Shown here piece by piece: positions 9,501 through 32,876 of a stretch of 35,844 bases of DNA. Source of the DNA: a bacterium (GTDB lineage: Bacteria > Pseudomonadota > Alphaproteobacteria > Rhizobiales > JAKIUO01); contig JAAETJ010000272.1 in assembly GCA_024228495.1 (NCBI GenBank), positions 1 through 35,844 on the forward strand, in the 5' to 3' direction. Position 1 is the stretch's first letter. Every line of letters begins with the position of its first letter. The notes under the pieces are model-generated. The model worked only from the letters and a program-made list of their open reading frames with translations, was not told the origin of the DNA and ran no database searches. Made by a program: the position numbers and the translations under genes.

Positions 9501-10802
9501 ATGTCATCTTTGAGCCAAAACGATCCTCACCACATCCACCTCAATCTCAATGTGAGGGGGCTCAAACCATCTGCCACTCTCGCCATCAATGAAAAATCTA
9601 AACAGCTGCAAGACGAAGGGCGTCAGATATTTCGCCTTGGGCTTGGCCAATCGCCATTTCCAGTTCCTAGCATTCTGGTGGAAGAGCTGAAAAAAAATGC
9701 CCACCAGAAAGACTATCTGGCGGTAAAGGGACTGGCCCCTTTGCGCGACGTGATCGCCGCTCATTATCAGCGCCGTGAGGGTGTCACCTATTCACTTGAT
9801 GATGTGCTTATTGCTCCCGGCTCCAAAGAGCTGATGTTTCTCATTCAGCTAGTCTATTATGGAGATCTGGTGATCCCCACACCAAGCTGGGTTTCCTATG
9901 CCCCGCAAGCCTCGATCATTGGCCGCAATGTGCACTGGATTAAAGCGCGCGAAGATGACGGATGGCGCTTGTCGGCTAATGTTCTGGAAGAACATTGTCG
10001 CCCCGACCCAACGAGGCCGCGTATTGTCATTTTGAATTATCCCAACAACCCCACCGGCACCAGCTATAGCGACGAGGAACTTGAAAAACTGGCACAGGTG
10101 GCGAGGCGCTATAAAGTCATATTGCTATCCGATGAGATCTATGGCGAAACGCGATTTGATGGCAAGCATGTGTCCATTGCCAAACATTATCCTGAAGGCA
10201 CGATCATCAGCGGCGGTTTGTCAAAATGGGCCGGTGCCGGTGGTTGGCGTCTGGGCTGTTTTGTGTTTCCAAAACAATTGCATTGGCTGCGTGACGCGAT
10301 TGCGGTGGCGGCCAGCGAAACCTTTACCTCGACGAGCGCCCCCATTCAATATGCGGCCATCAAAGCCTATGAAAACAGCAATGAACTGCAGCAATATATT
10401 ACTGACACCCGCCGCGTCCTGGAGCGGGTTGGCATGTATATGCATGAACAGTTCATACAGGCCGGGCTCAAGCTCAGCGCGCCAGATGGCGGCTTTTATC
10501 TGCTGCCATCATTCGAAGATCACAGGCAAAAGCTCAATGCGCGCGGTATCATGACGAGCTCAGATCTCTCTAAAACATTGCTCGAAGAAACCGGCGTTGC
10601 AGCACTGCCGGGATCCGATTTTGGATTGCCGGACGAGCTATTGTGTCTACGGGTCGCCTATGTAGATTTCGATGGCACCAATGCACTTGCGCAAGCCGCT
10701 AAAATTGCATCCTTGAATCCCCTGCCCGATGATTTCATGGTCCAAAACGCGCCGCGTATTATCGAGGCGACCAAGCGCATCACGCAATGGTTGGAGAAAT
10801 AA
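9501..10802 (+). CDS. Class I/II PLP-dependent aminotransferase
   Basis: A 433-residue fold-type I aminotransferase. PLP-binding residues are visible: PNNPTG (Asn183), Asp211 and Tyr214 in SDEIYGETRF, Lys242 in SGGLSKWAGAGGWRLG, which forms the Schiff base, and Arg250. This is the aspartate-aminotransferase-like subgroup that also holds methionine, aromatic and prephenate aminotransferases. The amino-acid donor cannot be fixed. The extended N-terminus of about 35 residues before the usual IFRLGLGQSPFP is somewhat long. TTGGAG sits just before the ATG. It is divergent from the thiolase gene and convergent, stop to stop with 6 bp, with the caspase gene. Confidence 0.9.
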   Translation: MSSLSQNDPHHIHLNLNVRGLKPSATLAINEKSKQLQDEGRQIFRLGLGQSPFPVPSILVEELKKNAHQKDYLAVKGLAPLRDVIAAHYQRREGVTYSLDDVLIAPGSKELMFLIQLVYYGDLVIPTPSWVSYAPQASIIGRNVHWIKAREDDGWRLSANVLEEHCRPDPTRPRIVILNYPNNPTGTSYSDEELEKLAQVARRYKVILLSDEIYGETRFDGKHVSIAKHYPEGTIISGGLSKWAGAGGWRLGCFVFPKQLHWLRDAIAVAASETFTSTSAPIQYAAIKAYENSNELQQYITDTRRVLERVGMYMHEQFIQAGLKLSAPDGGFYLLPSFEDHRQKLNARGIMTSSDLSKTLLEETGVAALPGSDFGLPDELLCLRVAYVDFDGTNALAQAAKIASLNPLPDDFMVQNAPRIIEATKRITQWLEK

Positions 10803-10808
10803 GTTTTA

Positions 10809-13800
10809 TCATGGATCAAGAGTCCGCAGCACGGAAATAACGGCGCTCCCCTGGCGTCCTCCATGTTTGCGAGCTGGCACATAGACCGGCTGCTGAATAT
10901 CTGATTTCTTGAACCGATTACGAAACTCATTGGCTAGACTTTTTTCGTCATCGAGATCAAACTGACGATCCAGATAACGCTTGACCTCAACGATCTCGAT
11001 ACGATCGCGCCCAGCCTTCTTGCCGGGTAGATCCGCTTTTTTATCGGTCAGTGCTTTCAAGAAAGCGTAGGAAAATAGCCCATTGCCACGCTCATTGAAG
11101 GGACGCTTTGCATTGATCGCATATTTACGCTGATCCAGCGAATATTGTCCCGCCAGCCCGGAAAAAAAATAATGCGCCGATAGCACCTGATCCTGAAATT
11201 CAGCACTGATCATACCGGGATCAAAAGGCACCGCATCGAGATTGCCAACTGGCACACGGCAGGCATCAAATATCACCAGTTTTTCCGCGCTGATTTGTTT
11301 TAGGGCACCAATCAGGTCTTCGCTGGTAAACACCTGATCCTTGATACTCTGCTTGGTCAAAGCCGGGTCCGTTGCGTAGGTAACAAAGGCACTGCGGCCG
11401 CGATCCTTGTTATAAGGATGAATGAAGCCATGCCCCGAAAAGTGAAAGAAGAACAGATCATTGCTCAGCTCTTCGGCGCTATCCGCATTGACGATATTGT
11501 TAAGCGCTTGCAAAATGCCCGCCCTTGTCGACTCATAGCGCCGCACATAAGGTAAAGCTGTAAGGTCAGTAAGTTGCTCGCTGGTTGATTGCCCCTTTGG
11601 CGAGACAATCAGCGAGATATTGATACTTGAAAAGTCTGGCGACACTGCGGAACTATTGAGTGACCGCTTTTGATGATCGTCGACAAATAGCTGGGCGATA
11701 TCCAGCGCATCATTTTGCGTATATTGCAGATCGTAACTGCTGAACTGATGTTTCGAAATACCGATAATGATGGCCCACAGGCGACGCTTTTTTGCAGGCG
11801 CTATTTTACCTTGCCAGATCAGCGCATGACATGGCCCCGCTTTCTCATCCACATGAAAACACACATGTACGGCGCGATTACTTCGACGTGCCGTTGCAGG
11901 TAGCTCCACATCAAGGGCCAAGGCTGCTTGCTGGTTCAACGTGATTGACTTGTTCGCCTCTATGCGCTGACCCTCAACAATCTTCACCATATTGACGCCA
12001 GAACCAGTTTTGATCTGCAAACTACCAGCTGATTTTGGCAACCCGCTGGTATCAATTTGAAAACGCACCATTTTATTTGTAACCTCGGCCAGTTCTAACG
12101 GCAGTGCCACGCGCAAACCGACATGGGTGCCTTGCTGGTTTTGCGCGGCTTCATTAATGATGGGTAAAAAGCCGCGCACTCTGGCTTGCGGGATTGCTTG
12201 ATCAAGAGCCTGCTTGACTGCATTATCATCATAGAGCCGCAACAGCTTGCGATAGGGCACAAAGCTAACTTTGCCGGCCTGGCGCTCTACTTGCCAGCCG
12301 ATCTGTTTTTTGGCGCGCGGATCATTGGCGAATCTTCCAGAAGGCAGCCAGGCAGCCCAGATCCACTCTCCCAGCTCATCCTGGGCGATATGAACGGACA
12401 GCAATTTGTGAAACTTACATGCCTTGACAGTGCGCTCAATGCGATACCAGCGCAAGGTACCGTCACTATGACCAACAATCGCGGTGCGCCCGTCCGGGGT
12501 CAGATTGACCCGGAAGGCTTCATGATCAATGCGCACCCGACACAAGGTTTTGGCCCCTGCCTCATCATCTATTACCACCAGCCGCAAAAAATCACTACTG
12601 CCGAGCAGAACCAGTTTTTGATCCGTTACAATCGCCGCTGAACGATAGAAATCGTCTAGCACAGGGTGATCATCACGCAAGGGTTCGCCATAAATAAGCG
12701 GTGGTTTTCGACTGTTGCGCCAACCTTCTATGAGATTTTTATCGTGATTGGGAGCACTTACCCCCTCACCATCATCATCAAGGCGCGTCAGACGGCGTTT
12801 CGTCAGATCAAATTGCAAGCGCAAGCGTTCGCCATAGCGGCCACGATAATCATCGAACACTATTTTTTTGCCGTCCGCAGAGATCGAGAATGCCATGCCA
12901 CCATCGCGAAAATCAGCGGCCATATTGCGATCGGATAGCTCTTGCCCCTCGCCCAGTTCCAGTGCTTCGCCTTCATAGTCCATTAGCCCGATACGACGCT
13001 GGGTGGCATAAAGCAGCCCGCCGCGCTTGGGTAGCCCGATCAGCTCCATAACACGATCCGTACCCACTGGAATAAAGGCCGGATCTTCATCTTCATCCAA
13101 TGCCGAAAAACGGGCAATGCAAATATCGGCAACCGAAGTGATCTCTCCCAAAATAAGGTCGGGATTTACAAAAGTGCACCAAAACACCCCGCCCACAAAA
13201 ACCCACTCTTCATCATCTTCAGTTTTGACCCAGGCGACTTGCTCCAGCGATGTCTGATTCGCATCGGCATTTTGCTTGCGATCAAGGTAAGCTGGATGTT
13301 TGAGGTGATCTTCGCTGATAGCGAATGGCTTACGCGCCACTTTCAAAGTGTCAACAGAAATAACCGCGACACGCAAATGTACCGCCCCATCAAGGGCCCG
13401 GTTGCGCCGATCCCCTATCAGCAATTTCGAACCATCTGGAGAAAAGCTCACATCACCAGGGCGCTCAAGTTCTAGCTCACCCGGCTTGGCAAATGCCAAC
13501 CTTATTGCCTGATTGCCTTTAAGGCCATATGTTCTGACCCCACTATCACCTGACGTCACCAGCCAGAGTTTGTCATTGTTTTTTGAGAACGCTAGACTGG
13601 TTGTATCGGGCTTTGCATCCACATCCAGCGCCCTGCCGGTAGCGGTGCATTGATCCCCGCCGCCATAGTCCTTGTCGTCGCTATAAAACAGTTTCCAATC
13701 GGGTGCTTTCCAGACCCGCAACCCACAGCCATCACTTAATACTGCGGCCAGATATATACCGTCTGGCGAAAACCGCAACGCCTGCGGTCTTGTAGCGATG

Positions 13801-14240
13801 CCATCGATCTGCGCCAATTGCTCTCCACTTTTGCGGTCCAGCAGGTAGATTTTTGCCGTGCTGGATAAAGGCAGGCCATTATTTGCGGCGCGCGGCGGCA
13901 CGGAGCTTGCCACAAGCTTGCCAATTGGGCTGATCGCCACGCCATGGGCGCGCTTGCTTTGTTCCTTGCGGATCGGTACCCGCAATATCGATTTCGATTG
14001 CAAATCATCCAGAGGCCAGACATTCACCGCCTTATAAGCCGAACTCGACACCACATATTGCTCGCTTGCATCCACATCCAGGCGCCACAAGGTCGCCGCG
14101 AATGACGCATTGATACGCAGTGTCGGCTTGGCCTTTTGCGGCTCAACGGCTAGGGACAAACCGGTCAGCAGCAACCAAGCAGCCAGCACAAGAAAAGCCG
14201 AGGTCAAAAGTATTTTTGTTCGAGCATCAGATAAGAACAT
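10809..14240 (-). CDS. WD40 beta-propeller - caspase (peptidase C14) protein, membrane-anchored or exported
   Basis: An 1143-residue protein. A single hydrophobic segment (about 11-32, LLTSAFLVLAAWLLLTGLSLA) acts as an anchor or signal peptide, so the rest should lie outside the cytoplasmic membrane. WD40-like repeats follow from about 45 to 620 (for example RFSPDGIYLAAVLSDGCGLRVW and FSPDGSKLLIGDRRNRAL). A linker region of about 640-815 leads to the caspase domain at about 817-1100, opening with RRLWAIIIGISKHQ. The catalytic dyad is intact: His937 in HFSGHGF and Cys994 in IFDACR. It is therefore probably an active orthocaspase/metacaspase-type cysteine protease. Its substrate is unknown. It starts 5 bases after the stop of the secreted-protein gene upstream, so the two form an operon. 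Confidence 0.88.
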   Translation of the reverse strand: MFLSDARTKILLTSAFLVLAAWLLLTGLSLAVEPQKAKPTLRINASFAATLWRLDVDASEQYVVSSSAYKAVNVWPLDDLQSKSILRVPIRKEQSKRAHGVAISPIGKLVASSVPPRAANNGLPLSSTAKIYLLDRKSGEQLAQIDGIATRPQALRFSPDGIYLAAVLSDGCGLRVWKAPDWKLFYSDDKDYGGGDQCTATGRALDVDAKPDTTSLAFSKNNDKLWLVTSGDSGVRTYGLKGNQAIRLAFAKPGELELERPGDVSFSPDGSKLLIGDRRNRALDGAVHLRVAVISVDTLKVARKPFAISEDHLKHPAYLDRKQNADANQTSLEQVAWVKTEDDEEWVFVGGVFWCTFVNPDLILGEITSVADICIARFSALDEDEDPAFIPVGTDRVMELIGLPKRGGLLYATQRRIGLMDYEGEALELGEGQELSDRNMAADFRDGGMAFSISADGKKIVFDDYRGRYGERLRLQFDLTKRRLTRLDDDGEGVSAPNHDKNLIEGWRNSRKPPLIYGEPLRDDHPVLDDFYRSAAIVTDQKLVLLGSSDFLRLVVIDDEAGAKTLCRVRIDHEAFRVNLTPDGRTAIVGHSDGTLRWYRIERTVKACKFHKLLSVHIAQDELGEWIWAAWLPSGRFANDPRAKKQIGWQVERQAGKVSFVPYRKLLRLYDDNAVKQALDQAIPQARVRGFLPIINEAAQNQQGTHVGLRVALPLELAEVTNKMVRFQIDTSGLPKSAGSLQIKTGSGVNMVKIVEGQRIEANKSITLNQQAALALDVELPATARRSNRAVHVCFHVDEKAGPCHALIWQGKIAPAKKRRLWAIIIGISKHQFSSYDLQYTQNDALDIAQLFVDDHQKRSLNSSAVSPDFSSINISLIVSPKGQSTSEQLTDLTALPYVRRYESTRAGILQALNNIVNADSAEELSNDLFFFHFSGHGFIHPYNKDRGRSAFVTYATDPALTKQSIKDQVFTSEDLIGALKQISAEKLVIFDACRVPVGNLDAVPFDPGMISAEFQDQVLSAHYFFSGLAGQYSLDQRKYAINAKRPFNERGNGLFSYAFLKALTDKKADLPGKKAGRDRIEIVEVKRYLDRQFDLDDEKSLANEFRNRFKKSDIQQPVYVPARKHGGRQGSAVISVLRTLDP

Positions 14241-14245
14241 ACCGC

Positions 14246-15877
14246 TTATTTCACAACCTTGATCAGCAAATCCAATGGCCGCGTGAGCTTGCTCATATTA
14301 AACAACTCCCCATAGCGCTCATAATAGCCAGTGAGTGTGATGGTGGAATGAGCGACTTCCTTTTCCTTGATGCCAGCTGGCAGAGAAAACCGCAGATCCA
14401 CATATTCACCATAGCCAAGCTTCAACCGCTTTTGATCTGGCGCCACCAATCCCTCGACATCCGGTTTGAGAACATGCTTCTCGCCACTCTTTAAGGTGAT
14501 CAACAAACTGGCCTGATCGATGTGGGCCAGCTCTGGTTCACGCTCATGAATACGGAACCTTGATTTAAACCCCTCAAAACGACGCTGATCAGCCTGTTCC
14601 AAACCAGCCCCCTTGGCCTTGTCGAGTATTTTGCCGGTATTAATATAGTCGTTCAGCTCGCTCGACCAGACATGCAGATAGGGGCATGAGCCTCCTTCAT
14701 CGCCAGTTGTTAGTGAGACAAAATTGGAGGACTGCCCTTCCAGATCAAGGCGCTCTCCATTGACCTCGAGACCCTTTAAAAGTACTTCAGGTCCATATAC
14801 ATATCCTGGCAGATTGAAACCGGCCTGCCGGGTATCATCGACGATAAAGGCCATGCGTTGAAACAACAATGCTTTGTCACCAGGGTGCAAGATCAGCGCG
14901 CCCGTACCAAGAGGTGACGCCTGCTTTTTACGCAAAGCGGTGGATTTTGACAGACTGCGCAGCTTGGTCTTTTTGCTTTTGGCCCCCAGCAACTGTTTGA
15001 TTTTGATCACATTGGTGGAGGTATTTTCGACCACCGCCACATCAACCAGCATGGCGCGCTCTGTATACTTGAGCACCCAGCGCGCCGCATAACCCGCGCA
15101 CTCTGCAGGCATCTCGGCATTGCCATGAATGACCATGAATTTACGCGGTACGCCCTTGCGAGTAACATATTCGAGCATGGAAAAATATTTATTGTCCATG
15201 GAACCCTCGCGGGTCTTTTTCAATGCCGTTATCAGAGCATTATAGTCGCGTAGTTTCTTCTTGTAGTTTTTGAAATCGCGGCGCTTGGCATAGCGCCAGA
15301 TCTTCTTGACGCGTTCGCCATATTCGATGACCGTTTTGCTTTTGTAGGCTTTTGGCACGGTGCCATTATACTCGAGGGATCGCAGATCATCAGCAGCAGG
15401 AAAAACGCTATCTTCCAGCGACTGATACCATCCGCCAATTGAGCGGCGAATGGGGATCTTGCCGGCGCATTGATTGCCGCCCTGCATGCCCTGCCCCTTA
15501 CCAGCAGCAATGACTTTATAGGTCTCGCAGCCAAAGCCTTGAGTATATTCGCCAAACTTTTCCATCAAATTTTTATATTCGCGATGCACCTCATTGCTGA
15601 TCAGCTTTGGCTTGCCAAACAAGGTCTTGAAGCCCGCAGGCAGATTCCCCGCCAAAATGCCATGAGCCACGAAATCCGTAACACGATGAAAGCGCACGCG
15701 CACATTTTGATTGCTCTGTGTTCGGCACAGATAGTCGCGCAAGCGCATATTGTTACCGCCACTTTTAAGGATGCGAATATCCTGCAAACACTGCCCGGCA
15801 AAGACCGGGGTCGACTGGATCGGTTGAAAAGACAATAGACAAACAAGGCAGAGGGAGCGAAAAAGCCAGCGCAACAT
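14246..15877 (-). CDS. Secreted protein of unknown function, operon partner of the WD40-caspase
   Basis: A 543-residue protein with a signal peptide (about 1-27, MLRWLFRSLCLVCLLSF...PVFA), hence periplasmic or outer. GGAGG lies 8 bases before the ATG. I do not recognise a family. Visible features are Cys residues just after the signal (GQCLQDI, YLCRT) that may pair, a basic helical middle part (KKIWRYAKRRDFKNYKKKLRDY, about 195-225) and a beta-rich C-terminal half with alternating hydrophobic strands (TGALILHPGDKALLFQRMAF, SLLITLKSGEKHVLKP). No obvious enzyme motif. It is followed after 5 bases by the caspase gene. The tight coupling suggests a substrate, sensor or inhibitor of the protease, but this is inference. 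Confidence 0.85.
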   Translation of the reverse strand: MLRWLFRSLCLVCLLSFQPIQSTPVFAGQCLQDIRILKSGGNNMRLRDYLCRTQSNQNVRVRFHRVTDFVAHGILAGNLPAGFKTLFGKPKLISNEVHREYKNLMEKFGEYTQGFGCETYKVIAAGKGQGMQGGNQCAGKIPIRRSIGGWYQSLEDSVFPAADDLRSLEYNGTVPKAYKSKTVIEYGERVKKIWRYAKRRDFKNYKKKLRDYNALITALKKTREGSMDNKYFSMLEYVTRKGVPRKFMVIHGNAEMPAECAGYAARWVLKYTERAMLVDVAVVENTSTNVIKIKQLLGAKSKKTKLRSLSKSTALRKKQASPLGTGALILHPGDKALLFQRMAFIVDDTRQAGFNLPGYVYGPEVLLKGLEVNGERLDLEGQSSNFVSLTTGDEGGSCPYLHVWSSELNDYINTGKILDKAKGAGLEQADQRRFEGFKSRFRIHEREPELAHIDQASLLITLKSGEKHVLKPDVEGLVAPDQKRLKLGYGEYVDLRFSLPAGIKEKEVAHSTITLTGYYERYGELFNMSKLTRPLDLLIKVVK

Positions 15878-16471: not shown

Positions 16472-17644
16472 ATGATAAAGAAAAAATATCTACTGGCATT
16501 CACCTTCTTTGCTTCCCTCCTTGTAGTCGCATATATTCACCTGACCAAAAACCTTGAAACCTATGGCATCATGGTGCAGTTTGCCCGTCCTATTTCTTCT
16601 CCAGTGCCCGAAGGTCTGCAGAGCATAAAGGCCAGCGAGTGTGGCCAGTGCCATGTGGAGATTTACAAGGAATGGCAAACCACCATTCATGCAAAGGCCT
16701 GGAAAGAAGATTATTTTCAGACCGACTGGCGCTATGACAAGTCCAAGCAAAACTGCCTCAACTGTCATACGCCATTTGAGAACCAGCAGGAAAATCTGGT
16801 CGTTGGTTTCAAGAATGACAATCTGTGGAAGCCTATCTTCAAAACCAATCCAAATTTTGACGCCGCCTTTCGCGATGAAGGAGTGACCTGTGCCTCTTGC
16901 CATATCGTCAAGGGTAAAATCAGAGGACCGCACAAAAGCGAGGACGCCCCCCACGCCACCAGCTATGCCCCCGAAATGCGTAATGGTAGTAGCGTATGTG
17001 TGCGTTGCCATGTCACCGATGCCACCCATGAAGCCTCGATTGGCAACCCAAATCTTTGCAGCACCATGTCTGAGATCGAAGCCAATAAAATCAAACCCAA
17101 CTGCATTGAATGCCATATGCCAAAAATCACCAGGCCGCTGATGGAGGGCTATCCGGCCCGCCTCGGTCGCCAGCATTTGTGGCGTGGCGGCCACGACCCC
17201 AAAATGGTCTCAAAAGATCTGCGCCTCGAAATAAAACAGCGCTCAAATGAGGGCAGCAATTATGCCTATGACATCGTCCTTACCAATATCGGCACCCACC
17301 ACAAGCTGCCAACGGGAGTGCCAGACCGGCATATTATTGTCACCATGGAACTGCTGAATGGCAAGGGCGAGGTGGTGAAAAGCAAAACCCACAAAATCAT
17401 CCGCCGCATTTTCTGGCGACCGGTTATTTTTGAGTGGAGCGACAATCGGCTGGAATTTGAAAAACCTCAAACCGTGGGTTTTGAATTTTCTCATGCTAAA
17501 GGTGACGGACCGCTGACCCTGCGTGTCAAGGCCGTCTATCACTTCCTCGAAAGCTGGCGCCGCAAACAACTCAAACTCGCAGCAGATTCCCACTTGCCCT
17601 ACCTCATGCAGCAAAAATCCATTTCGGTCGGCCTGAACCGTTAA
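16472..17644 (+). CDS. Five-heme membrane-anchored c-type cytochrome (cytochrome c554 family)
   Basis: A 390-residue multiheme cytochrome. An N-terminal hydrophobic segment (about 6-24) anchors it in the inner membrane with the rest in the periplasm. Five CxxCH motifs are at 57-61 (CGQCH), 95-99 (CLNCH), 140-144 (CASCH), 176-180 (CVRCH) and 211-215 (CIECH). Further His residues (His73, His154, His161, His186) could be axial ligands. The order and the segment SECGQCHVEIYKEWQTTIHAKAW match the cytochrome c554 / multiheme family. A C-terminal beta-rich domain of about 150 residues has TNIGTHHKLPTGVPDRHI. A role in electron transfer with nitrogen or sulfur compounds is possible, but no partner gene is present. 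AAGGTGA precedes the ATG. Confidence 0.88.
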   Translation: MIKKKYLLAFTFFASLLVVAYIHLTKNLETYGIMVQFARPISSPVPEGLQSIKASECGQCHVEIYKEWQTTIHAKAWKEDYFQTDWRYDKSKQNCLNCHTPFENQQENLVVGFKNDNLWKPIFKTNPNFDAAFRDEGVTCASCHIVKGKIRGPHKSEDAPHATSYAPEMRNGSSVCVRCHVTDATHEASIGNPNLCSTMSEIEANKIKPNCIECHMPKITRPLMEGYPARLGRQHLWRGGHDPKMVSKDLRLEIKQRSNEGSNYAYDIVLTNIGTHHKLPTGVPDRHIIVTMELLNGKGEVVKSKTHKIIRRIFWRPVIFEWSDNRLEFEKPQTVGFEFSHAKGDGPLTLRVKAVYHFLESWRRKQLKLAADSHLPYLMQQKSISVGLNR

Positions 17645-23727: not shown

Positions 23728-23883
23728 ATTCCTGTCAACCTTCCCCTGTAATCTTTTTACTATCTGACCACATATAAGTCTTTTGGCACCGGGTTACGAT
23801 ATTTTCTTGAGACTTGCACGCTCTAACTTGATAGATTGTCGCCACAAGCATCCCAAAAATGCGAGAAAATGCGGGAAAATGCC

Positions 23884-25899
23884 ATGCCTAAATATAAATT
23901 CTTCGCTGCACCATTATTCACCGTCCTGTTTGCGGTTTTTCTCTTGCTGCCGCAAAAGGCCATGAGTGCCGACAAACACCCTCCAGCCGTGCTAATTATT
24001 GATGGCTCCGGTAGCATGTGGGGACGATTAAACAAGCGCGAGAAAATTGTCATCGCCCGTCAGGAACTGGCACGCCAGATCGATTTATTGCGCACCAAAG
24101 TTGACCTTGGGGTGATGTCCTATGGCCATCGCCGCCGCCGCGATTGTCGCGATATCGAGATGATTGTTCCCATTAGTCCCATTGACCAAAAAGTTCACAG
24201 CGAGGCGATCAAACGTTTGTTACCGCGCGGCAAGACCCCCATTTCAAGCGCGCTGGAAATGGCGGCAAAAGCACTCAAATCCTCCCGAACGCAACACACG
24301 AAGGGTCAGCTCACCCATATAGTTCTGGTGGCCGACGGCATTGAGAACTGCCGCCGCAATCCCTGCAAAACCGCCGCCGACCTGTCAGCGCGATATCCCG
24401 GCCTTGCTATTGACGTCATCGGCTTTGCTGTGCCGGAAGCAGAACTACCCCAGCTAGAGTGCATTGCACAAAACAACAAGGGGCGCTTTCATCGGGCCAA
24501 TAATACAACCGAGTTGCAAACTGCCATCAAACAGGTTTTCAGCTCGCTGGGCGCTACCAGCAAACCAGCAATCATCGTCAAGAAAAAACAGATCAAAAAA
24601 GAACCGTCGGGGCTTTATCTAAGCGCTGGTTTATCTTCAAAAGGCGCAGTTCTCGATCAAGATATTAGCTGGCGTATTTATCCAGCGGGACAAAGCTCAA
24701 AAACCGGTGCCACTCCCTTGCAGCGCCACACCACGGCCGCTCCTTTTTTACCTCTGCCAAGTGGTCAATATCATATTGAGGTGCGCCATCAGACATTGCT
24801 TGCTGAGCGCGACGTTACCTTGCGCGCTGACACGGCTATCAAGCTGCACCTTAGTTTCAATATCGGTATTTTCACCGCCAGCGCAAAACTGGGAGAAAGT
24901 GCCGCCCCATCGGATAATATCATCTTCTCCGTTTATGACGCCTCGTCAGGAAGTGACAGCACAGGTGAAATTATTGCCCACAAACAACAATCCAAAGCCG
25001 TGTTCTATCTTCCCCCTGGCACCTACAGCCTCAAGGCAAGAGCCAATGAAACACAGACCCGCCATGACTTCACACTGAAAGCTGGAGAGCGAAAAACTCA
25101 CATATCACTGCTGGATGCTGGGGAAATCAGCTTTAATGCGCGCCTTGCCAAGGATCTACCCGAGCTGCGTGATGTGCAATATGCGATCTATCAGCGTCGT
25201 TCGAAAAAAGATGTGGAATTTATCCGCACCCTTGACCCCAACCCCAGGCTGATACTCCCCAAGGGCGACTATTTCGTGCTGGCCCGTCAGGGAGCTGCTT
25301 CCAGCTATACAAGGCTTTTCGTCAAAGCCGGCGATACCAAAACTATTTCCCTCACACTCAATGCGGGCATATTGAAGCTATCGTCCAATCTCGACAATCG
25401 CGCCATCGATCAATCTGCCCAGATCGCCTATACAATTGAACCCGTGGATCACAACAATTCCAAAACCGTCAAATTATCGGCCGATAGCACACTGGTGGAA
25501 ATAGCCCAGTCATTGCCAACCCGCAGTTTCCGCAATCGATTTGTGTTGCGTGCCGGAGACTATGTCATCAAAGCCATTTATGGCAATTCAAATGCCCGGG
25601 CAAGCGCACAGGTTCATGTTGTCGCTGGTGAGGAAACAGAACATGAAATCAAAATGAGTGCTGGCAGGGTGAAATTTTCCCTCGCTTTAGCCCTTGGCGA
25701 TCCGCCACTACCAGGGGTGTTTTGGAGTATACTTGATGCCTCGAACAATCAGATCGCCAGCGCCAGCTCTATAACTCCAAGGCTAACATTGGCAAAGGGC
25801 AATTATCAAGTGGTGGCTGACTATCTTGGAGAAAGCTACCGCAAGAGCTTTGTCATAAATAATGGGGACAATAAAAATATTCAGCTGGAGCTGCAATGA
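23884..25899 (+). CDS. Exported von Willebrand A domain protein with tandem beta-rich repeats (VWA-1)
   Basis: A 671-residue protein with a signal peptide (about 1-28, FFAAPLFTVLFAVFLLLPQKAMS). The VWA domain at about 33-215 has an intact MIDAS: Asp40-Ser42-Ser44 in IIDGSGSMWGR, Thr118 in GKTPISSAL and Asp151 in VADGIENC. It should bind a divalent metal and a protein ligand in the periplasm or at the surface. After a Lys-rich linker, about five repeats of about 85 residues each carry the pattern LP.G.Y.V.A, then V.AG...., then L.AG, suggesting a string of beta-sandwich domains. A start at 23836 or 23869 is possible but 23884 places the signal peptide at the N-terminus. A second gene of the same design lies downstream. 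Confidence 0.88.
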   Translation: MPKYKFFAAPLFTVLFAVFLLLPQKAMSADKHPPAVLIIDGSGSMWGRLNKREKIVIARQELARQIDLLRTKVDLGVMSYGHRRRRDCRDIEMIVPISPIDQKVHSEAIKRLLPRGKTPISSALEMAAKALKSSRTQHTKGQLTHIVLVADGIENCRRNPCKTAADLSARYPGLAIDVIGFAVPEAELPQLECIAQNNKGRFHRANNTTELQTAIKQVFSSLGATSKPAIIVKKKQIKKEPSGLYLSAGLSSKGAVLDQDISWRIYPAGQSSKTGATPLQRHTTAAPFLPLPSGQYHIEVRHQTLLAERDVTLRADTAIKLHLSFNIGIFTASAKLGESAAPSDNIIFSVYDASSGSDSTGEIIAHKQQSKAVFYLPPGTYSLKARANETQTRHDFTLKAGERKTHISLLDAGEISFNARLAKDLPELRDVQYAIYQRRSKKDVEFIRTLDPNPRLILPKGDYFVLARQGAASSYTRLFVKAGDTKTISLTLNAGILKLSSNLDNRAIDQSAQIAYTIEPVDHNNSKTVKLSADSTLVEIAQSLPTRSFRNRFVLRAGDYVIKAIYGNSNARASAQVHVVAGEETEHEIKMSAGRVKFSLALALGDPPLPGVFWSILDASNNQIASASSITPRLTLAKGNYQVVADYLGESYRKSFVINNGDNKNIQLELQ

Positions 25900-25989
25900 A
25901 CGCCAGGCGCTGGGACTTTACGTACAGTGCGCCTCGTCCCGGGTCTGGCCGGGGTGCATATAACTGGAATGCCATGTCTTTTGCTGTGA

Positions 25990-26418
25990 AAGGCACTCTC
26001 CGGCAATCATGATCTTGACAAGGCCGAAATGGTGGCCCGCCTCAATCACCAATTGGCGGGATGGGCGGCCTTTTACAAATTCACTGACTTTACAGCGCAT
26101 TTCTTCTCGCGCATCGACCATGTGATGTTCTGGAAATTTGCACACTGGCTGGCTCGCAAATACCGAACCCGGATCAAGCCACTGAAGCGTAAATGGTATA
26201 GGGCTCCCGAAAAAGACAAGGCAAAAACCTGGGTCCTCTTTGGGATCAGTGAACAAGGAAACCGTATCGGAAAGGAACTACGCCGACTGGTCACAAGTCC
26301 AAAGGCTCAGTTTCGCTAGCGCAACCCGGAAAGAAACCCCTATCTCAAAAGGGAAGAAGTCCGCAATACTGTCACCTCGCGCTATCATGATATTGCAATA
26401 GCCATGGGCCAGACTTGA
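25990..26418 (+). pseudogene. Group II intron reverse transcriptase/maturase, C-terminal fragment with a nonsense mutation
   Basis: The frame carries NHDLDKAEMVARLNHQLAGW, AAFYKFTDFTAHFFSRIDHV, WKFAHWLARKYRTRIKPL and KAKTWVLFG, the maturase X and DNA-binding/endonuclease end of intron-encoded proteins. All reverse transcriptase motifs, including YADD, are missing. An in-frame TAG at 26317 interrupts the frame where family members have Trp (KAQFR[W]RNPE). Reading through, the frame runs RNPERNPYLKREEVRNTVTS, then RYHDIAIAMGQT, to TGA at 26416, six bases before domain V. The usual tail is therefore still visible, and this is a true pseudogene. Confidence 0.88.
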
Positions 26419-26423
26419 ATGGA

Positions 26424-26492
26424 GAGCCGTATGCGCTGAAAGGGGCACGTACGGTTCAGGGTGGAGAAGCGATTCGGCGTTTCTTACTCCAC
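26424..26492 (+). ncRNA. Group II intron domains V and VI
   Basis: Domain V is the 34-base hairpin at 26424-26457: it opens GAGCCGTATGC, has a GAAA tetraloop and closes with GCACGTACGGTTC. The catalytic AGC triad near its base is kept. One G-G mismatch lies in the distal helix. Domain VI at 26461-26492 pairs GTGGAG with CTCCAC and AAGCG with CGTTT, leaving an unpaired A at 26486 that is the likely branch point. Confidence 0.85.
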
Positions 26493-26577
26493 TTTATCGA
26501 GCGAAAGATCCATAAAAAACTTTCATAGTTATGCCGCATTTTTTCGTCTATGCTCATGCATAGCGGGGAATCACAAT

Positions 26578-28479
26578 ATGAATGAATTTGCAATGCGTGG
26601 ATCAGCTCTTCGATACACATTGATGGTTGCGGTAATGATCGCTGCCTTGTTGAGCACTCATGCCCCGATCAAAGCCAAGCCCCCCCCGCAACTGGTGATG
26701 ATTGTCGACGCCTCCGCGTCGATGGAAGACAAGCTGACCAATGAGCTAAAATATAAGCTGGTGCGCAAGGCCATGAGCACAGCTCTTCCCGCCTATGGCG
26801 GCAAACTGCAAGCCGGCCTCATCACATTTGGTCATAATTCCCGCAACTCGTGCAAGGATATTACCCGCCTGGTGGACCTCAAACCACTAAATTCAAAAAC
26901 CTTTGCCAATGTCATCAGCAATATAAAACCAAAAGGCAAAAGCCCCATTGGCGCTTCACTGGCCGCCGCAGCAGACCTGGCGAACATTGTTTCCAGGTCT
27001 TCACACATGCTGTTGATTGCCGATGGTAGTGACAATTGCAGCGCCAATATTTGCGCCAGCGCCAATCTCATTGCCAAACGCTCACCGCAAACAAAGATCC
27101 ACGTCATCGGGCTTGGCAAAACGTCAGCGGTCAATCGCTTGTCTTGTGTGTCCAGCGCCACCAATGGTATTTTCAACGCGGTTGAGAATAGCGCTGAAAT
27201 GGCCGCCACCCTCAAAGTCATATTTCAGACCGTCATCATAGGCAAAAATCCCGCCAAGCCAACGCTGGCCGTATTGGCGAAGCCTCCCTTGCCCAATCCC
27301 CGCCATGCTGACGAATCCACGCCAAAAGCTACTGTAAAGCGCACGATCGAATTTCCCAGGACGTTACCCCTCCCTGTGCGATCTGCAGCGCGATTAAAAG
27401 CTTCAAAGGCACTTGTACAGATGCAAACAGAACCCGAGACGACAGCAGCACTCCCCCAGAAAGACGCTGGCCTGCCCGTCGAAGCAACAAAAGCACAAAA
27501 AGCTCCCGCTGATATCAAAGCTGAAGCGCCTATTATTTGGCAAAATATCACCGAAAAACCTACAATCATCGCTGAGGCGTCGCCATCTGCAATAGCTGCC
27601 TCAACTCCGGCTCCGGCTCCTACGCCTGCCAAATCCGTGACCCAACCAACCGCTCCTCCCCCCAACACGACCTTTCTTGGCAACAAGCCGAGAATTGAGA
27701 TCACCCTGCCGGAAACATCTGCCAAGGTGACATTTGGCGCGCTGATCAGTGAACAGGGCAAAGCCATAGAGAGCGGACTGTTCTGGCGGATATATCAATC
27801 ACGCAAAGATGATGACGGGCGTTACAAACTGGTAAAATCAAAGAAAGGCGCTCAGTTTGATGACCAGCTGCCGCTAGGCGTTTATCTGGTCAATCTTTCC
27901 TGGGGGCGCTCGCATCTCACCGAGAAACTGGATATTTTATCCTCCAAGCCCTTTGTCCATAATTTCATCCTGAACGCAGGTGGATTGCGACTTGGAGCGC
28001 GTCATCTCAATGGATCGGTGCTTCCCGCATCAAAGGTCGTCTATCGAATTTATTCGGACGAACGTGACCAGTTCGGCAAGCGCCGTTTGATCCTCGATAA
28101 TGCAAAGCCCGCCCGCACCATTCGCCTCAATGCCGGCATCTATCATGTTGCCAGCCTCTATGGCACTGGCAATGCTCTCATTGAAACAGATGTAACCATT
28201 GAAGCTGGCAAGCTCACCGACGCAGTAATAAATCATAGCGCCAGCAAGGTGACCTTCAAGCTCGTCAATAAACCAGGTGGAGAAGCGCTGGCCGGAGCAA
28301 TCTGGCGGATCTCGTCGCCAGATGGAAAACTCATCAAGAACGCTGCTGGTGCCTTGCCAAACCTTATTCTGGCGGCAGGCGACTACATGATTACTGCAAA
28401 ATATTCAGGCCGTACGTTCACCCGCAAAGTGACAATTGAAACTGGCGATCCGGTCTATGTGGAACTTGTGATTGAATAA
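26578..28479 (+). CDS. Exported von Willebrand A domain protein with tandem beta-rich repeats (VWA-2)
   Basis: A 633-residue protein. A signal peptide (about 1-33) precedes a VWA domain (about 36-225) with MIDAS Asp44-Ser46-Ser48 in IVDASASMED. The usual MIDAS Thr is replaced by Ser in GKSPIGASL, and the third site is IADGSDNC. A long Pro/Ala/Lys-rich linker (about 235-400) is probably disordered. At least three beta-rich repeats follow, with FWRIY, VYRIYSDE, GIYHVASLYG and AIWRISSPDG, matching those of VWA-1. ATG 26578 follows GCGGGGAA and starts the signal sequence. The open frame runs on to 26461 only because it reads through intron domain VI. It is a paralogue of VWA-1. Confidence 0.87.
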   Translation: MNEFAMRGSALRYTLMVAVMIAALLSTHAPIKAKPPPQLVMIVDASASMEDKLTNELKYKLVRKAMSTALPAYGGKLQAGLITFGHNSRNSCKDITRLVDLKPLNSKTFANVISNIKPKGKSPIGASLAAAADLANIVSRSSHMLLIADGSDNCSANICASANLIAKRSPQTKIHVIGLGKTSAVNRLSCVSSATNGIFNAVENSAEMAATLKVIFQTVIIGKNPAKPTLAVLAKPPLPNPRHADESTPKATVKRTIEFPRTLPLPVRSAARLKASKALVQMQTEPETTAALPQKDAGLPVEATKAQKAPADIKAEAPIIWQNITEKPTIIAEASPSAIAASTPAPAPTPAKSVTQPTAPPPNTTFLGNKPRIEITLPETSAKVTFGALISEQGKAIESGLFWRIYQSRKDDDGRYKLVKSKKGAQFDDQLPLGVYLVNLSWGRSHLTEKLDILSSKPFVHNFILNAGGLRLGARHLNGSVLPASKVVYRIYSDERDQFGKRRLILDNAKPARTIRLNAGIYHVASLYGTGNALIETDVTIEAGKLTDAVINHSASKVTFKLVNKPGGEALAGAIWRISSPDGKLIKNAAGALPNLILAAGDYMITAKYSGRTFTRKVTIETGDPVYVELVIE

Positions 28480-28718
28480 ACAATCGCTTCACCGATACTT
28501 CCCCCTATTCACTACCCTTCAACAGATATCGAGGCAGTGCAGGCACAAAAATGAAGGGCCGGGGATTTCTCAACCCGACCCCTCGAAGGGCATCAACTTT
28601 TGGAGGTAACAGGAACAAGTTTTTAGGAGGTATGTTCCGTGATGCCCTCTTGCGATATAGCAAGGTTGCCTGCCGCGCCTGGCGAGACAATGAAAACCAT
28701 TGGCGCCAGACATCCTTA

Positions 28719-29147
28719 CTAATAGCGTCGACCATTCCTTAGGGTGATCGAGAAACCAGGACCGTCATAGTAAAGGCCGGCACGATTGCGCGGACCATAA
28801 TACTTCCCACGATAATATCTGCCATAGCCACACCATCCACGACGATCGCGATCCATGATACGTCCCCAGCGGTTCAGACGCAGGGAGTATCTCTTGCCAT
28901 TGCGACAGGCCCGTACTTTGTAAACGGGAAGATGGCGGTCGGTGAAGTGAATATTGCGATATCCTCGATCACGCAGACTGCGGCGAACACCTTTGGGTGA
29001 CAAAGCCACTGTTTTTGCCAGTGATTTGATCGGGACATACATGTGAGCGCGAGCACTAGAACCGGCACCAGCAGCAAAGGCCGACGAACTGGCGGCAACA
29101 GCACTGGCTGCCAAAACGCCCAATCCGATTAATATTTTATGGGTCAT
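28719..29147 (-). CDS. Small secreted basic protein, PepSY-like pattern
   Basis: A 142-residue protein with a signal peptide (about 1-25, ILIGLGVLAASAVAASSSAFA). The mature part has VRRSLRDRGYRNIHFTDRHL then VYKVRACRNGKRYSLRLNRWGRI, the alternating pattern of small secreted PepSY-like proteins common in alphaproteobacteria. A Tyr/Arg/Gly-rich tail (GYGRYYRGKYYGPRNRAG) follows and the protein ends with ITLRNGRRY. It should be periplasmic or surface-bound and strongly basic. Function is unknown. It is convergent with VWA-2. Confidence 0.8.
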   Translation of the reverse strand: MTHKILIGLGVLAASAVAASSSAFAAGAGSSARAHMYVPIKSLAKTVALSPKGVRRSLRDRGYRNIHFTDRHLPVYKVRACRNGKRYSLRLNRWGRIMDRDRRGWCGYGRYYRGKYYGPRNRAGLYYDGPGFSITLRNGRRY

Positions 29148-29336
29148 TATTCCATTCCTTTCATTACATTACTCGGCCATTACCGAGCTTGACACCAATT
29201 TTAGAAGAGGCTGTCTGAACCAAACCGGAAAGCTTCATTCATCTCGCATTCATCTTGATATTTTTTTCGAAAAGGATAACCGTGCGCTCGGGCAAGGGCA
29301 TAGTGCGGGCTTATTTCGACATGATGTGGAATACCA

Positions 29337-29597
29337 ATGGAGCACAGATGTGCCGCTTGTAAATATGAAGCGGAAAAAATACTAGAAACCGAGCCAACGG
29401 ACTGGTTCACACGCTGTATCGACAGCACAGATTATATCTTGTGCGATGTTTGTGGCCATCAAAGCCATTCTCATGTTGGCATCTCTTCCTATCTAAAAGA
29501 CATGCTTGAACAGGATGAACGGGCCATTTGGGACCTTTCGGCAGAAGCAGCTGTGCTTGGCATTGAGCGCCGACGCTTTCGCAAGTCACCGCGATAG
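29337..29597 (+). CDS. Small putative zinc-ribbon protein, unknown function
   Basis: An 86-residue frame with two CxxC pairs, CAAC at 5-8 and CDVC at 36-39, a spacing fit for one bound zinc. Cys27 and several His (His41, His44, His46) lie nearby. The C-terminal half looks helical and charged (YLKDMLEQDERAIWDLSAEA). The ATG has only a weak upstream site (GTGGAA). It overlaps the hydrolase gene tail to tail by 12 bp. The paired cysteines make it more credible than a random frame, but no family is recognised. Confidence 0.55.
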   Translation: MEHRCAACKYEAEKILETEPTDWFTRCIDSTDYILCDVCGHQSHSHVGISSYLKDMLEQDERAIWDLSAEAAVLGIERRRFRKSPR

Positions 29598-30512
29598 TCC
29601 TTGGCGCGATGAACCATCCTTGTCCAATACGGCCACAAGACGCGTTAGCACTTCTTCGAAATGCTCGAAAATCCAGAAATGTCCCTGCCCCGGCAATCGA
29701 ACGATCTCAACATTCCTGAAACTGTCAGCCAGTTTGAACACGGCTTTTTTCGGCACCATCAGATCCCTTGAGCCTTGCCATATAAACACCGGCATATCCA
29801 CTTTTTGCAGCGGCAACTGCCATGGGTTTGCAAACAGGCGTAGATCTTCCAGCATACCAATGACCCCAGACCGCAAGCCGTCACAAAAAGCCGCCAGCAG
29901 CGCTTCTTGATGATGACGCTTGCTTAAGATCAATCGATCCGAGCGCGAAAGGCCAAGGCTGAAAATCTTTAAGAATAAGTCGGGGCCAAGCGTTATCAAG
30001 AGCCGTGCAATGGTAAAAACCGGTTTTGCCAGTATCTGATAGCGAGGCAGCAGGCTAAAAAACAGCTTGTTGCGCCAGGACCAAACTTGGCGCACCTCTT
30101 GATCAATTATCCCCACCGGACTGATCAGCGCCAGACCAATCACCCTTTGCGGTATCAACGCAGCAATAGCAATAGCAAACGGCCCTCCACCAGAGACACC
30201 AAACAGCCAGAACCGGTCAATTTTTAAAGCCTCGAGAAGCAGCGCGATGTCTTTCACCCATTGCGCGAAAGATGTATCGGGATAACTGCTAGAAAACCCA
30301 TAGCCTGGCCTGTCAGGAGCAATCAGGCGGATGCCGTTCTGGCTGGCAAATTGATCAGCTGGTCGAATCATGATGCGCGAGCCAGGCGTACCGTGGATGG
30401 CTAATACAGCTCGCCCACCGGCATCACCATATTGCGCATATCCCATCAATCGCCCATCAGGCAAGCGCAATTGTTTATCGCTTAATTCCGTTACTTCTCG
30501 AGCGTGTCCCAT
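29586..30512 (-). CDS. Alpha/beta-fold hydrolase
   Basis: A 308-residue cytoplasmic hydrolase of the AB_hydrolase_1 group. The oxyanion region is AIHGTPGSRIM. The nucleophile is Ser107 in FGVSGGGPFA, the acid Asp250 in WQGSRDLMVP and the base His278 in GQGHFWIFEH, so the triad is complete. The YAQYGDAGGRAVLAIHGTPGS start and APDRPGYGFSS are typical of esterases/epoxide-hydrolase-like members. The substrate is not determinable. GAGGA lies 13 bases before the ATG, which is far. Confidence 0.91.
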   Translation of the reverse strand: MGHAREVTELSDKQLRLPDGRLMGYAQYGDAGGRAVLAIHGTPGSRIMIRPADQFASQNGIRLIAPDRPGYGFSSSYPDTSFAQWVKDIALLLEALKIDRFWLFGVSGGGPFAIAIAALIPQRVIGLALISPVGIIDQEVRQVWSWRNKLFFSLLPRYQILAKPVFTIARLLITLGPDLFLKIFSLGLSRSDRLILSKRHHQEALLAAFCDGLRSGVIGMLEDLRLFANPWQLPLQKVDMPVFIWQGSRDLMVPKKAVFKLADSFRNVEIVRLPGQGHFWIFEHFEEVLTRLVAVLDKDGSSRQGLSR

Positions 30513-30656
30513 TCAATTTCAAAATCCTCAGAAACGGGCTCATTGTTTTTTGCAAGACAGATGGATGGCGGTTCATGATCGATAATGCTATGAATGAATT
30601 TTCACATCGGCATTGATCTCAGCATAAAAGGAACGTAGCACATAATTAGAGCGCGC

Positions 30657-30683
30657 GGCTTCAATGTTTTTTTCATTGAAGCC
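30657..30683. other. Perfect stem-loop downstream of arfB
   Basis: GGCTTCAATG and CATTGAAGCC form a perfect 10-bp stem around a loop of seven T (plus strand). It lies 42 bp past the arfB stop, in the 212-bp gap before the hydrolase gene. No T-run follows on either strand, so it is not a classical terminator. It may block or protect the 3' end of the FHA-PP2C-arfB transcript. Confidence 0.6.
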
Positions 30684-30724
30684 ATGTTGTTAAATCGCCA
30701 TTCGCATTCCTTCAAGAATAGGAA

Positions 30725-31150
30725 CTATTCTTCTGATTGTTTTGGTCGCCGTCGCATTTTTTTGACGCCAGATCGCTTGGTCTTGCGCTCAAGACGGCGT
30801 CTTTTTTGTGTCCTGCTGGGCTTCGTGGCTATGCGTTTTTTTGGTTCAATGCAGGCGGTCTTTATCAGCTCAACAAGGCGCTCAATAGCGTCTTTGCGAT
30901 TGGCGTCCTGGGTGCGATGCTTGTTAGCGGTGATAACAATCACCCCTTGCTTGGTCAAGCGACGACCCGCCAGTTTTTCGAGCCGCACGCGTACGCGCAA
31001 GGACAGGGCATTAGATCCACGAACGTCATAGCGCAATTGCGCGGCGCTCGAAACCTTGTTGACATTTTGTCCACCAGGACCGCTGGCCCGTATATAAGTG
31101 AACTCAATCTCATCTTCATCAATGGACACGCGATCATTGATCACAATCAT
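30725..31150 (-). CDS. arfB: Alternative ribosome-rescue factor ArfB (codon-independent peptidyl-tRNA hydrolase)
   Basis: A 141-residue rescue factor that hydrolyses peptidyl-tRNA on stalled ribosomes lacking a stop codon. The GGQ catalytic motif is at 26-28 in RASGPGGQNVNKVSSAAQLR. The family tail is long and basic (KKRIATKPSRTQKRRRLERKT, then GVKKMRRRPKQ) and enters the empty mRNA channel. Length fits E. coli YaeJ (140). Its ATG overlaps the phosphatase stop codon (ATGA), so the two are translationally coupled and share a transcript. Confidence 0.95.
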   Translation of the reverse strand: MIVINDRVSIDEDEIEFTYIRASGPGGQNVNKVSSAAQLRYDVRGSNALSLRVRVRLEKLAGRRLTKQGVIVITANKHRTQDANRKDAIERLVELIKTACIEPKKRIATKPSRTQKRRRLERKTKRSGVKKMRRRPKQSEE

Positions 31151-31959
31151 TTCGATGACTTCATCTTGTCAAAGCCAATCGCCACAACGGTGATATTATC
31201 CTGCTCCGGAGCGGCCTTCTTCTTGACCGCACCCAGCAGTTCCTGGGCCATCTGATCCGCGCTTTTTGAGCTATTCCTGGAAACAATCTTAGCGATACGG
31301 TCATAGGAAAGGGTCGCCAGTCCGTCACTAGCCATAATCAGCCAATCACCTTTGACGAGAGGGGTCACTTCACGATTGAGATCAACCAGCGTGATTTCAT
31401 CGCCAGTAACGGCCGAACGCAACATATTGCGCTTGGGATGATGCAAGGCTTCCACCGTGGTAATTTCGCCGCGATCCACCAAATCACTCAAAACCGGTGC
31501 CAGAGAATGATCTTCATTTAGTTTTGAGAGCTTTTTGTTGTGGAACAGGTAGAGCAGGCTATCGCCAACACTCACCCAATGCACGCCAGATTGATCGACA
31601 CACACTCCCACTAAGGTACAACCCATGCCGTCCAGCTGCGGGTCATTTTCGATGGCTTTGGAAACGGTTTTATTGCTGGCGTCCAGACTGAGCAAAAGGC
31701 GCCGGTCAATCGATCCCTCGATTTTGGGATAGGTCGTCATAAAGCTGCCGCAGGTGATTTTGCTGGCTTTGGCTCCTCCGACATGGCCACCCATACCATC
31801 GGCGAGAACAGCAATCAGCTCCATGCAGCGGCGTTTATCGTGACCATTGCCGAGTTTCTTGTCCGAATGCTGAAAAACCTTGATGCCATAGGCATCTTCC
31901 TGGTGTTTTCGCTCACCAATATCGGATCGGCCTGCATGTTGAAAAGAGACAAATGTCAT
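31147..31959 (-). CDS. PP2C-family protein phosphatase (PppA/Stp1-like)
   Basis: A 270-residue metal-dependent Ser/Thr phosphatase. Metal-binding residues: Asp22 in RKHQEDAYG, Asp54 in VLADGMGGHVGG, the SDGLATL region and Asp254 in EQDNITVVAIG. It is soluble, with no membrane segment, so it should act on cytoplasmic phosphoproteins. It lies 59 bp downstream of the FHA gene and across the gap from the Ser/Thr kinase, so its natural target is probably the kinase or its substrates. In type VI secretion loci PppA, Fha and PpkA form the same trio. That parallel is inference. Confidence 0.93.
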   Translation of the reverse strand: MTFVSFQHAGRSDIGERKHQEDAYGIKVFQHSDKKLGNGHDKRRCMELIAVLADGMGGHVGGAKASKITCGSFMTTYPKIEGSIDRRLLLSLDASNKTVSKAIENDPQLDGMGCTLVGVCVDQSGVHWVSVGDSLLYLFHNKKLSKLNEDHSLAPVLSDLVDRGEITTVEALHHPKRNMLRSAVTGDEITLVDLNREVTPLVKGDWLIMASDGLATLSYDRIAKIVSRNSSKSADQMAQELLGAVKKKAAPEQDNITVVAIGFDKMKSSK

Positions 31960-32018
31960 CGCACGAACATTCTGTGATCAGGAACGGGGAGGCGAAATAG
32001 AAAAATACGCGACCATTA

Positions 32019-32844: not shown

Positions 32845-32876
32845 AATGAAATCAAAAAGCTTGCCATTGAGGTTCC

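What the first reader, a model, noticed from the sequence alone, without database searches (positions are those of the whole stretch)
10809..15877. Exported WD40-caspase in an operon with an unrecognised secreted protein
The caspase dyad His937/Cys994 is intact and the protein has an N-terminal anchor or signal, so the protease should work outside the cytoplasm. The partner gene ends 5 bp before it and encodes a 543-residue secreted protein I cannot place. The propeller could sense a ligand and trigger cleavage of the partner. WD40-caspase proteins are known in bacteria. The paired secreted protein is what seems new.
Basis: partly seen in the sequence, partly recalled or inferred. Interest (0 to 1): 0.7.

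Follow-up and report, generated by a model that had tools for sequence, protein, structure and literature searches.

The report
Exported caspase with fixed gene partner
In a few lineages of bacteria, a caspase-type protease that appears to be exported from the cytoplasm is encoded beside the same unknown exported protein, so the two very probably work as a pair, although what they cut or sense is not known.

Summary
The window holds a 1143-aa protein with a signal-like N-terminus, a propeller region and an intact C14 caspase domain (His937/Cys994), 5 bp after a 543-aa protein with a signal-like N-terminus that matches no Pfam, NCBIfam or PADLOC family. The pairing is conserved. The caspase subfamily occurs in 7 of 397 genomes searched in the order, and all 7 have the partner beside it; an eighth pair lies in a betaproteobacterium (Rubrivivax/Pseudaquabacterium pictum). 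Gene order is partner-caspase, caspase-partner or convergent, yet the two gene trees share 5 of 5 splits. Twelve sister WD40-caspase loci have no partner; sisters lack the paired family's eight extra cysteines. A half-length relative of the partner also follows a caspase gene on a Calothrix plasmid. The partner superfamily is older than the link: five distant homologues and one close paralogue have no caspase. Evidence that the caspase cuts its partner is thin: one candidate residue (R45). Best reading: an extracytoplasmic protease with a dedicated binding or sensing subunit. It is a new variant of a known kind (bacterial caspase with a co-encoded partner), with a new protein family as the partner. 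Nothing was tested at the bench.

The parts
14246..15877 (-). Partner gene, 543 aa, first gene of the pair; signal-like N-terminus, then mixed and beta-rich regions
   Evidence: no Pfam/NCBIfam/PADLOC match
15794..15877 (-). Partner signal-peptide-like segment (about aa 1-28)
   Evidence: hydrophobic stretch plus VFAG site; inference, no predictor available
14840..15082 (-). Partner middle beta-strand region (about aa 266-346, DVAVxENTS...LxPG motif), Ig-like by inference
   Evidence: strands; weak DUF4232 matches in 2 of 14 homologues, best E 0.0016
14303..14689 (-). Partner C-terminal beta-sandwich-like region (about aa 397-525) with GSCP and EREPE motifs; the Calothrix protein aligns to aa 348-520
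10809..14240 (-). WD40-caspase gene, 1143 aa, second gene of the pair
14148..14240 (-). Caspase signal-peptide-like segment (aa 1-31, A31 invariant in 7 of 7)
   Evidence: inference, no predictor available
12261..14108 (-). Propeller region (about aa 45-660), probably two tandem propellers
   Evidence: Pfam WD40/PD40 just over cut-off; Foldseek top hits tandem propellers from a low-confidence model
11796..12128 (-). Beta-strand-rich linker (about aa 705-815) with the conserved Cys794/Cys804 pair
11037..11777 (-). C14 caspase domain (aa 822-1068)
11430..11432 (-). catalytic His937 codon
11259..11261 (-). catalytic Cys994 codon

Best explanation
A two-gene extracytoplasmic protease module. Shown by sequence: the two genes are co-inherited as a pair, both products have export-like N-termini, and the caspase dyad and acidic pocket are intact. 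Inferred: the partner is a dedicated, non-catalytic binding subunit (sensor or adaptor) that docks on the propellers outside the cytoplasm. When it binds its ligand or target it licenses the caspase to cut after Arg/Lys, most likely in a third protein or in the caspase chain itself. The partner fold is older than the link and was recruited to the protease.
For: In 397 genomes of the order the caspase subfamily occurs in 7 (matches of 611 bits or more; the next genome match is 122 bits; sister ORFs score 135-205 bits as a whole) and all 7 have the partner adjacent; in G017 the caspase is split over two contig ends and adjacency is shown for its N-terminal part. Five lineages: the window's genus (4 of the 5 genomes held; G003, 88% complete, has neither gene), L026, L027, L030 and the betaproteobacterium L028. 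Order and orientation vary (L030 caspase first, L028 convergent), so linkage is kept through rearrangement. Caspase tree and pruned partner tree share 5 of 5 splits. Sister WD40-caspases: no partner at 12 of 12 loci and no neighbour family recurring at more than two loci. Of 59 order genomes with any match to the caspase profile, the 52 without the subfamily include one with any partner homologue (G584, distant and elsewhere). Family caspases have eight non-catalytic cysteines that 11 of 11 aligned sisters lack at those columns; the partner has Cys30 and Cys51 in 14 of 14: this fits disulphides in an oxidising compartment. Asp844 and Asp992 are conserved in 18 of 18 (7 family, 11 sisters) and predict a basic P1 (pocket residues after PMC6426788, section 17 read). 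Partner superfamily members occur without a caspase, so the partner has a function of its own. A caspase also lies two genes before a partner-like C-terminal half in Calothrix.
Against: No contact, cleavage, location or expression data. The partner model is mediocre (pLDDT 68.2) with no significant fold match, so 'binding subunit' rests on the absence of a known enzyme family plus its beta-rich look. L029, a close paralogue, has no caspase. The convergent genes in L028 cannot be one operon. Only five lineages carry the pair, and two partner forks are weak (52/67 and 78/89). Over all 14 partner homologues the caspase label is not clustered on the tree more than shuffled labels often are (179 of 500 as low).
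Confidence: 0.43

Rival explanations
1. The partner is the substrate: the caspase cuts it outside the cytoplasm and so activates, releases or destroys it.
For: In known bacterial systems a caspase-type protease cuts a co-encoded protein: Csx29 cuts Csx30 (PMC10028731, abstract and outline seen) and CanA is reported to activate the CanC nuclease (PMC12799240, passages seen). Co-inheritance is as strong as for a substrate. R45, in a low-confidence stretch between Cys30 and Cys51, is basic in 8 of 8 linked partners and absent from 5 of 6 unlinked ones.
Against: R45 is also present in the caspase-free paralogue L029, and the model places it in a (low-confidence) strand. R274 and R307 are invariant in all 6 unlinked rows too. 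The low-confidence loops 113-143 and 220-228 are not conserved in sequence by eye.
Confidence: 0.35
2. The two proteins serve one extracytoplasmic process and are co-encoded for co-expression, but do not touch each other; or one is a folding or secretion helper of the other.
For: Both look exported; the partner exists without the caspase (L029, L022, L075, L076, L077, L081).
Against: Matched trees and 7 of 7 co-occurrence through changes of gene order argue for more than shared expression; the convergent pair in L028 is not a simple operon.
Confidence: 0.17
3. An anti-phage or conflict module like those built on caspase and TIR effectors, with the partner as sensor or effector.
For: The caspase matches the PADLOC caspase model (4.9e-8); one partner homologue sits between a TIR-nSTAND1-TPR gene and a lipase-subtilase gene; the Calothrix fragment follows a caspase and an EAD10 gene.
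Against: Both window proteins look exported, unlike cytoplasmic sensing systems; window neighbours read as metabolic genes (my reading); the partner has no match in phage records and none confirmed in viral contigs; no NTPase gene in the pair.
Confidence: 0.05

Closest known systems
Bacterial caspase homologues (orthocaspases/metacaspases, Peptidase C14, PF00656), WD40-bearing forms
   Same: C14 domain above cut-off, His/Cys dyad, acidic pocket; WD40 is the commonest extra Pfam domain in such proteins (73 of 671; PMC3501461, passages seen)
   Different: Subfamily with eight conserved extra cysteines and a fixed exported-looking partner; the sister WD40-caspases read here have neither
Canu (CanABC) caspase-nuclease loci
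   Same: Caspase co-encoded and co-evolving with a partner (PMC12799240, passages seen)
   Different: Canu is a phage-defence locus with a pro-nuclease and a MALT1-like caspase; here both proteins look exported and the partner matches no nuclease family in Pfam
Type III-E Craspase (Cas7-11, Csx29, Csx30)
   Same: Caspase-clan protease with a co-encoded partner (PMC10028731, abstract and outline seen)
   Different: Csx29 is TPR-CHAT and RNA-guided; here C14, CHAT below cut-off, and the long window ORFs hold no Cas protein that I recognise (not searched with a Cas library)
Caspase modules of NTP-dependent conflict systems (EAD, MoxR-vWA, VMAP)
   Same: Caspases paired with fixed partner genes (PMC7159879, passages seen); the Calothrix homologue sits beside an EAD10 gene
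   Different: No NTPase or effector-associated domain in this pair, and both products look exported

Membership tests
Bacterial caspase homologues (Peptidase C14) | C14 domain above the curated cut-off | tested here: met
   52.4 bits against 21.4
Bacterial caspase homologues (Peptidase C14) | intact His-Cys dyad | tested here: met
   7 of 7 family rows; 11 of 11 aligned sisters and the twelfth, L104
Bacterial caspase homologues (Peptidase C14) | two pocket Asp residues for a basic P1 | tested here: met
   D844 and D992 in 18 of 18; mapping to TbMC2 Asp95/Asp211 (PMC6426788) made by eye
Bacterial caspase homologues (Peptidase C14) | cleavage after Arg/Lys | not testable with these tools
   needs purified protein
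WD40 propeller proteins | WD40 repeats above cut-off | tested here: met
   29.9 bits against 27, marginal; tandem propellers lead the fold search of a low-confidence model
Canu (CanABC) | co-encoded nuclease | tested here: inconclusive
   Partner has no Pfam or NCBIfam match and weak fold matches only; a diverged nuclease is not formally excluded
Canu (CanABC) | phage protection | not testable with these tools
   needs plaque assays
Type III-E Craspase | CHAT protease | tested here: not met
   CHAT 13.6 bits, below cut-off 24; C14 is the match
NTP-dependent caspase conflict systems | STAND/MoxR-type NTPase in the unit | tested here: not met
   The two-gene unit is flanked by an aminotransferase-like gene (my reading) and a divergent multihaem cytochrome gene; no NTPase in the pair

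The most novel reading that the evidence does not exclude
A dedicated extracytoplasmic caspase system: a disulphide-stabilised, exported WD40-caspase regulated by, or acting on, a cognate exported beta-rich protein of a new superfamily that has repeatedly been coupled to proteases or death-type effectors (a caspase in six lineages counting Calothrix, TIR-nSTAND plus subtilase in one). It would be a caspase circuit that senses outside the cytoplasm.
Probability: 0.3. Interest if true: 0.75.

Novelty: new variant of a known kind. Interest (0 to 1): 0.5.

Why it matters
As far as I recall, bacterial caspases with an established job act inside the cell. A caspase that is exported and tied to one partner protein would offer a small, testable two-protein system for how caspase-type proteases are controlled outside the cytoplasm. 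The partner defines a protein family that Pfam and NCBIfam, as searched here, do not hold, and its C-terminal module may mark other caspase- or TIR-linked systems.

Tried and rejected
Fold of the partner: the AF2 model is middling (pLDDT 68.2). Foldseek gave 0 matches at E <= 1e-3; the top rows were binary-toxin pore components with probability about 0.1-0.2 and TM about 0.1, which I treat as noise. VIA-align best Z 5.7, residues 408-521, among capsid and lectin-like sandwiches: no family claim is made. The model of the caspase is poor (pLDDT 53.7), so its fold matches count as support for propellers only.

Cleavage-site test in the partner: one candidate, R45, not specific (L029 has it). A basic stretch before the YVYG motif occurs in L027, L029, L075, L076 and L077 (by eye), four of which are unlinked, so it is not a caspase signature.

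Partner among known defence or phage proteins: none by PADLOC, phage records or viral contigs (57 pattern matches, none confirmed). Plasmids: one record for P0002 (Calothrix), only itself for the Calothrix protein, two weak records for L027's protein, of which Ensifer at E 0.9 was ignored.

Sister WD40-caspases as owners of another fixed partner: all-against-all of neighbouring ORFs of at least 130 aa gave only one recurring neighbour, a cation-efflux-like gene (my reading) at 2 of 12 loci. In L104 the ORF filter hid the caspase ORF; a repeat over every ORF of at least 60 aa found it and again no partner at 12 of 12 loci. Other caspase-profile hits (for example G006, G049, G072, G035, G710) were not read.

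Promoter scan: 7 hits against 6.6 expected, uninformative; terminator scan 13 against 6.5, not used. Pfam scan of all 14 partner homologues: only weak matches, DUF4232 in 2 being the most frequent.

Literature: searches list no paper whose title or abstract start describes this gene pair. That covers only the open-licence library, and searches returned mostly unrelated papers. PMC5587647 (passages) notes caspases next to WD40 genes in cyanobacteria.

Rows and loci not counted twice: L009-L016, L031-L037, L062-L066 and L078-L079 are the same places as the window, L022 or L023-L030; L067-L074 and L080 the same as L027, L029, L075, L076, L077 or L081. The caspase tree used a truncated row for L026.

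Full report
What is there. Two same-strand genes 5 bp apart: a partner of 543 aa (14246-15877, -) and a 1143-aa WD40-caspase (10809-14240, -). The caspase domain is a clear C14 match, and His937 and Cys994 are numbered correctly. The gene beyond the partner's start (16472-17644, +) is divergent and the gene beyond the caspase's end (9501-10802, +) is convergent, so in this genome the unit is two genes.

Export. All 7 caspases of A4 and all 9 close partners start with a hydrophobic stretch; cleavage-like sites were read by eye. The caspase family also has eight non-catalytic cysteines. At seven of those eight columns 7 of 7 family rows have Cys; at column 198, 5 of 7 do, the other two having a Cys a few residues away. 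None of 11 aligned sister WD40-caspases has Cys at any of them, although some sisters have other cysteines. The partner has Cys30 and Cys51 in 14 of 14 homologues. I read this as disulphide-bonded proteins outside the cytoplasm; that is inference. The sisters also start with signal-like stretches in the two printed, so export itself may not be special to the pair.

Is the pair real? Partner homologues are rare: 7 of 101 relatives, 10 of 397 genomes of the order, 1 of 385 in a sample of the class, the window's own (smaller alignment), 2 of 398 in a sample of the phylum, one the window's own, and 8 loci in the public genome scan. The caspase subfamily is as rare: of 397 genomes of the order 7 carry it at 611 bits or more, the next genome match being 122 bits (the tallies 397, 340 and 141 agree, so I take it to be the same draw). 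All 7 have the partner beside it; in G017 the caspase is split over the ends of two contigs, so adjacency is shown for its N-terminal part. One more pair is in Rubrivivax pictus, now Pseudaquabacterium pictum, a betaproteobacterium. In the window's genus 4 of 5 genomes held have the pair; G003 (88% complete) has neither gene. Of 9 close partner loci (window, L023-L030) 8 have the caspase; the exception, L029, is a second copy in the MAG that also has the pair L027. Arrangements: partner then caspase (window, L023, L024, L025, L026, L027), caspase then partner (L030, 12 bp apart), convergent (L028, 6 bp apart).

Co-descent. The tree of 8 caspases and the partner tree pruned to the same 8 share 5 of 5 splits (trees, comparison). 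Four of the eight are one genus, so the informative part is the order of five lineages, and two partner forks are weak (52/67 and 78/89).

Control. Twelve loci with WD40-caspases just outside the subfamily (122 bits or less per genome match, 135-205 bits as whole ORFs; the 11 compared are 36-70% identical to each other) have no partner homologue in any ORF of 60 aa or more and no neighbour family at more than two loci. Genome-wide, 8 of the 11 genomes concerned have no partner homologue at all (G626, G013, G591, G611, G546, G763, G088, G028); G584 has only a distant one elsewhere, and G017 and G041 have it next to their subfamily caspase. More broadly, of the 59 order genomes with any caspase-profile match, 7 have the subfamily, and of the other 52 only G584 has any partner homologue. 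The partner goes with one subfamily, not with WD40-caspases at large.

The wider partner family. Five more distant homologues (L022, L075, L076, L077, L081) and L029 have no caspase-profile match in any ORF of 60 aa or more in the 8-20 kb read (for L077 the whole 8-kb contig, with L111). L022 lies between a TIR-nSTAND1-TPR gene and a lipase-subtilase gene; L075 is near an alpha/beta-hydrolase-like gene (below cut-off); the others sit among metabolic or unrelated genes. On a Calothrix plasmid a 24%-identical C-terminal half (P0002 residues 348-520, E 2e-6) follows a stand-alone caspase gene and an EAD10 gene on the same strand; its N-terminal half is missing or has no start. On the tree of 14 partners the caspase label needs 4 changes, and shuffled labels are as low in 179 of 500 trials. 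So over the whole superfamily the link is not one clean clade, which counts against reading every homologue as a caspase partner.

How it might work. The caspase keeps both pocket aspartates in 18 of 18 sequences, which predicts cutting after Arg/Lys as in other bacterial caspases. The propeller region matches tandem propellers best, from a poor model (pLDDT 53.7); propellers usually bind proteins (established knowledge). The partner has beta-rich middle and C-terminal regions and matches no known enzyme family. Residues invariant over the 9 close members and also in all 6 unlinked rows are few: Cys30, Cys51, R274, R307 and Ser397 of the GSCP motif. I favour a binding or sensing subunit (0.43) over a substrate (0.35). 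The expected mark of a substrate, a conserved basic residue in a flexible stretch found in linked copies only, is met by none; R45 comes nearest (8 of 8 linked, 1 of 6 unlinked, low-confidence region). The alignment is small, so this is a weak preference.

Relation to known systems. Bacterial caspases paired with a co-encoded partner are known: Csx29-Csx30 (PMC10028731, abstract and outline), Canu (PMC12799240, passages) and conflict systems (PMC7159879, passages). WD40 is the most frequent extra domain in bacterial metacaspases, and an N-terminal helix that may be a signal peptide has been noted (PMC3501461, passages). What I did not find described is an exported WD40-caspase with this partner (searches; open-licence library only). 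The finding is a new variant of a known kind, with a new protein family as the partner.

Noticed in passing
window 23836-35417: Cluster of two exported-looking vWA proteins, a PP2C phosphatase, a weak FHA match (19.8 bits, cut-off 20.7) and a Ser/Thr kinase whose C-terminal part is a WD40 propeller: a second propeller-based signalling protein in the same window.
   Followed up: no
L108:1-5327: In G017 the subfamily caspase is followed by a phospholipase-D-like gene with a lipoprotein-like start and a second caspase gene, reading frames nearly touching.
   Followed up: partly
L022:8650-16635: TIR-nSTAND1-TPR gene, partner homologue and lipase_3-subtilase fusion in a row on one strand.
   Followed up: partly
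L110:3096-6567: Calothrix plasmid: caspase, EAD10 protein, then a partner-like C-terminal half with no clear start.
   Followed up: partly
L027:1865-4755: The L027 pair lies near genes that look like a terminase and a ParB-like protein (my reading of the translations), which hints at mobile DNA.
   Followed up: no
L029:5954-11994: A caspase-free close paralogue of the partner lies between an acetolactate synthase small subunit gene and, by my reading, a ketol-acid reductoisomerase gene.
   Followed up: no
window 16472-17644: Multihaem cytochrome gene divergent from the pair.
   Followed up: no
whole genome G000: Eight C14 loci in a 5.1-Mb, 1254-contig assembly, with a single partner homologue, beside the one in the window.
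   Followed up: partly
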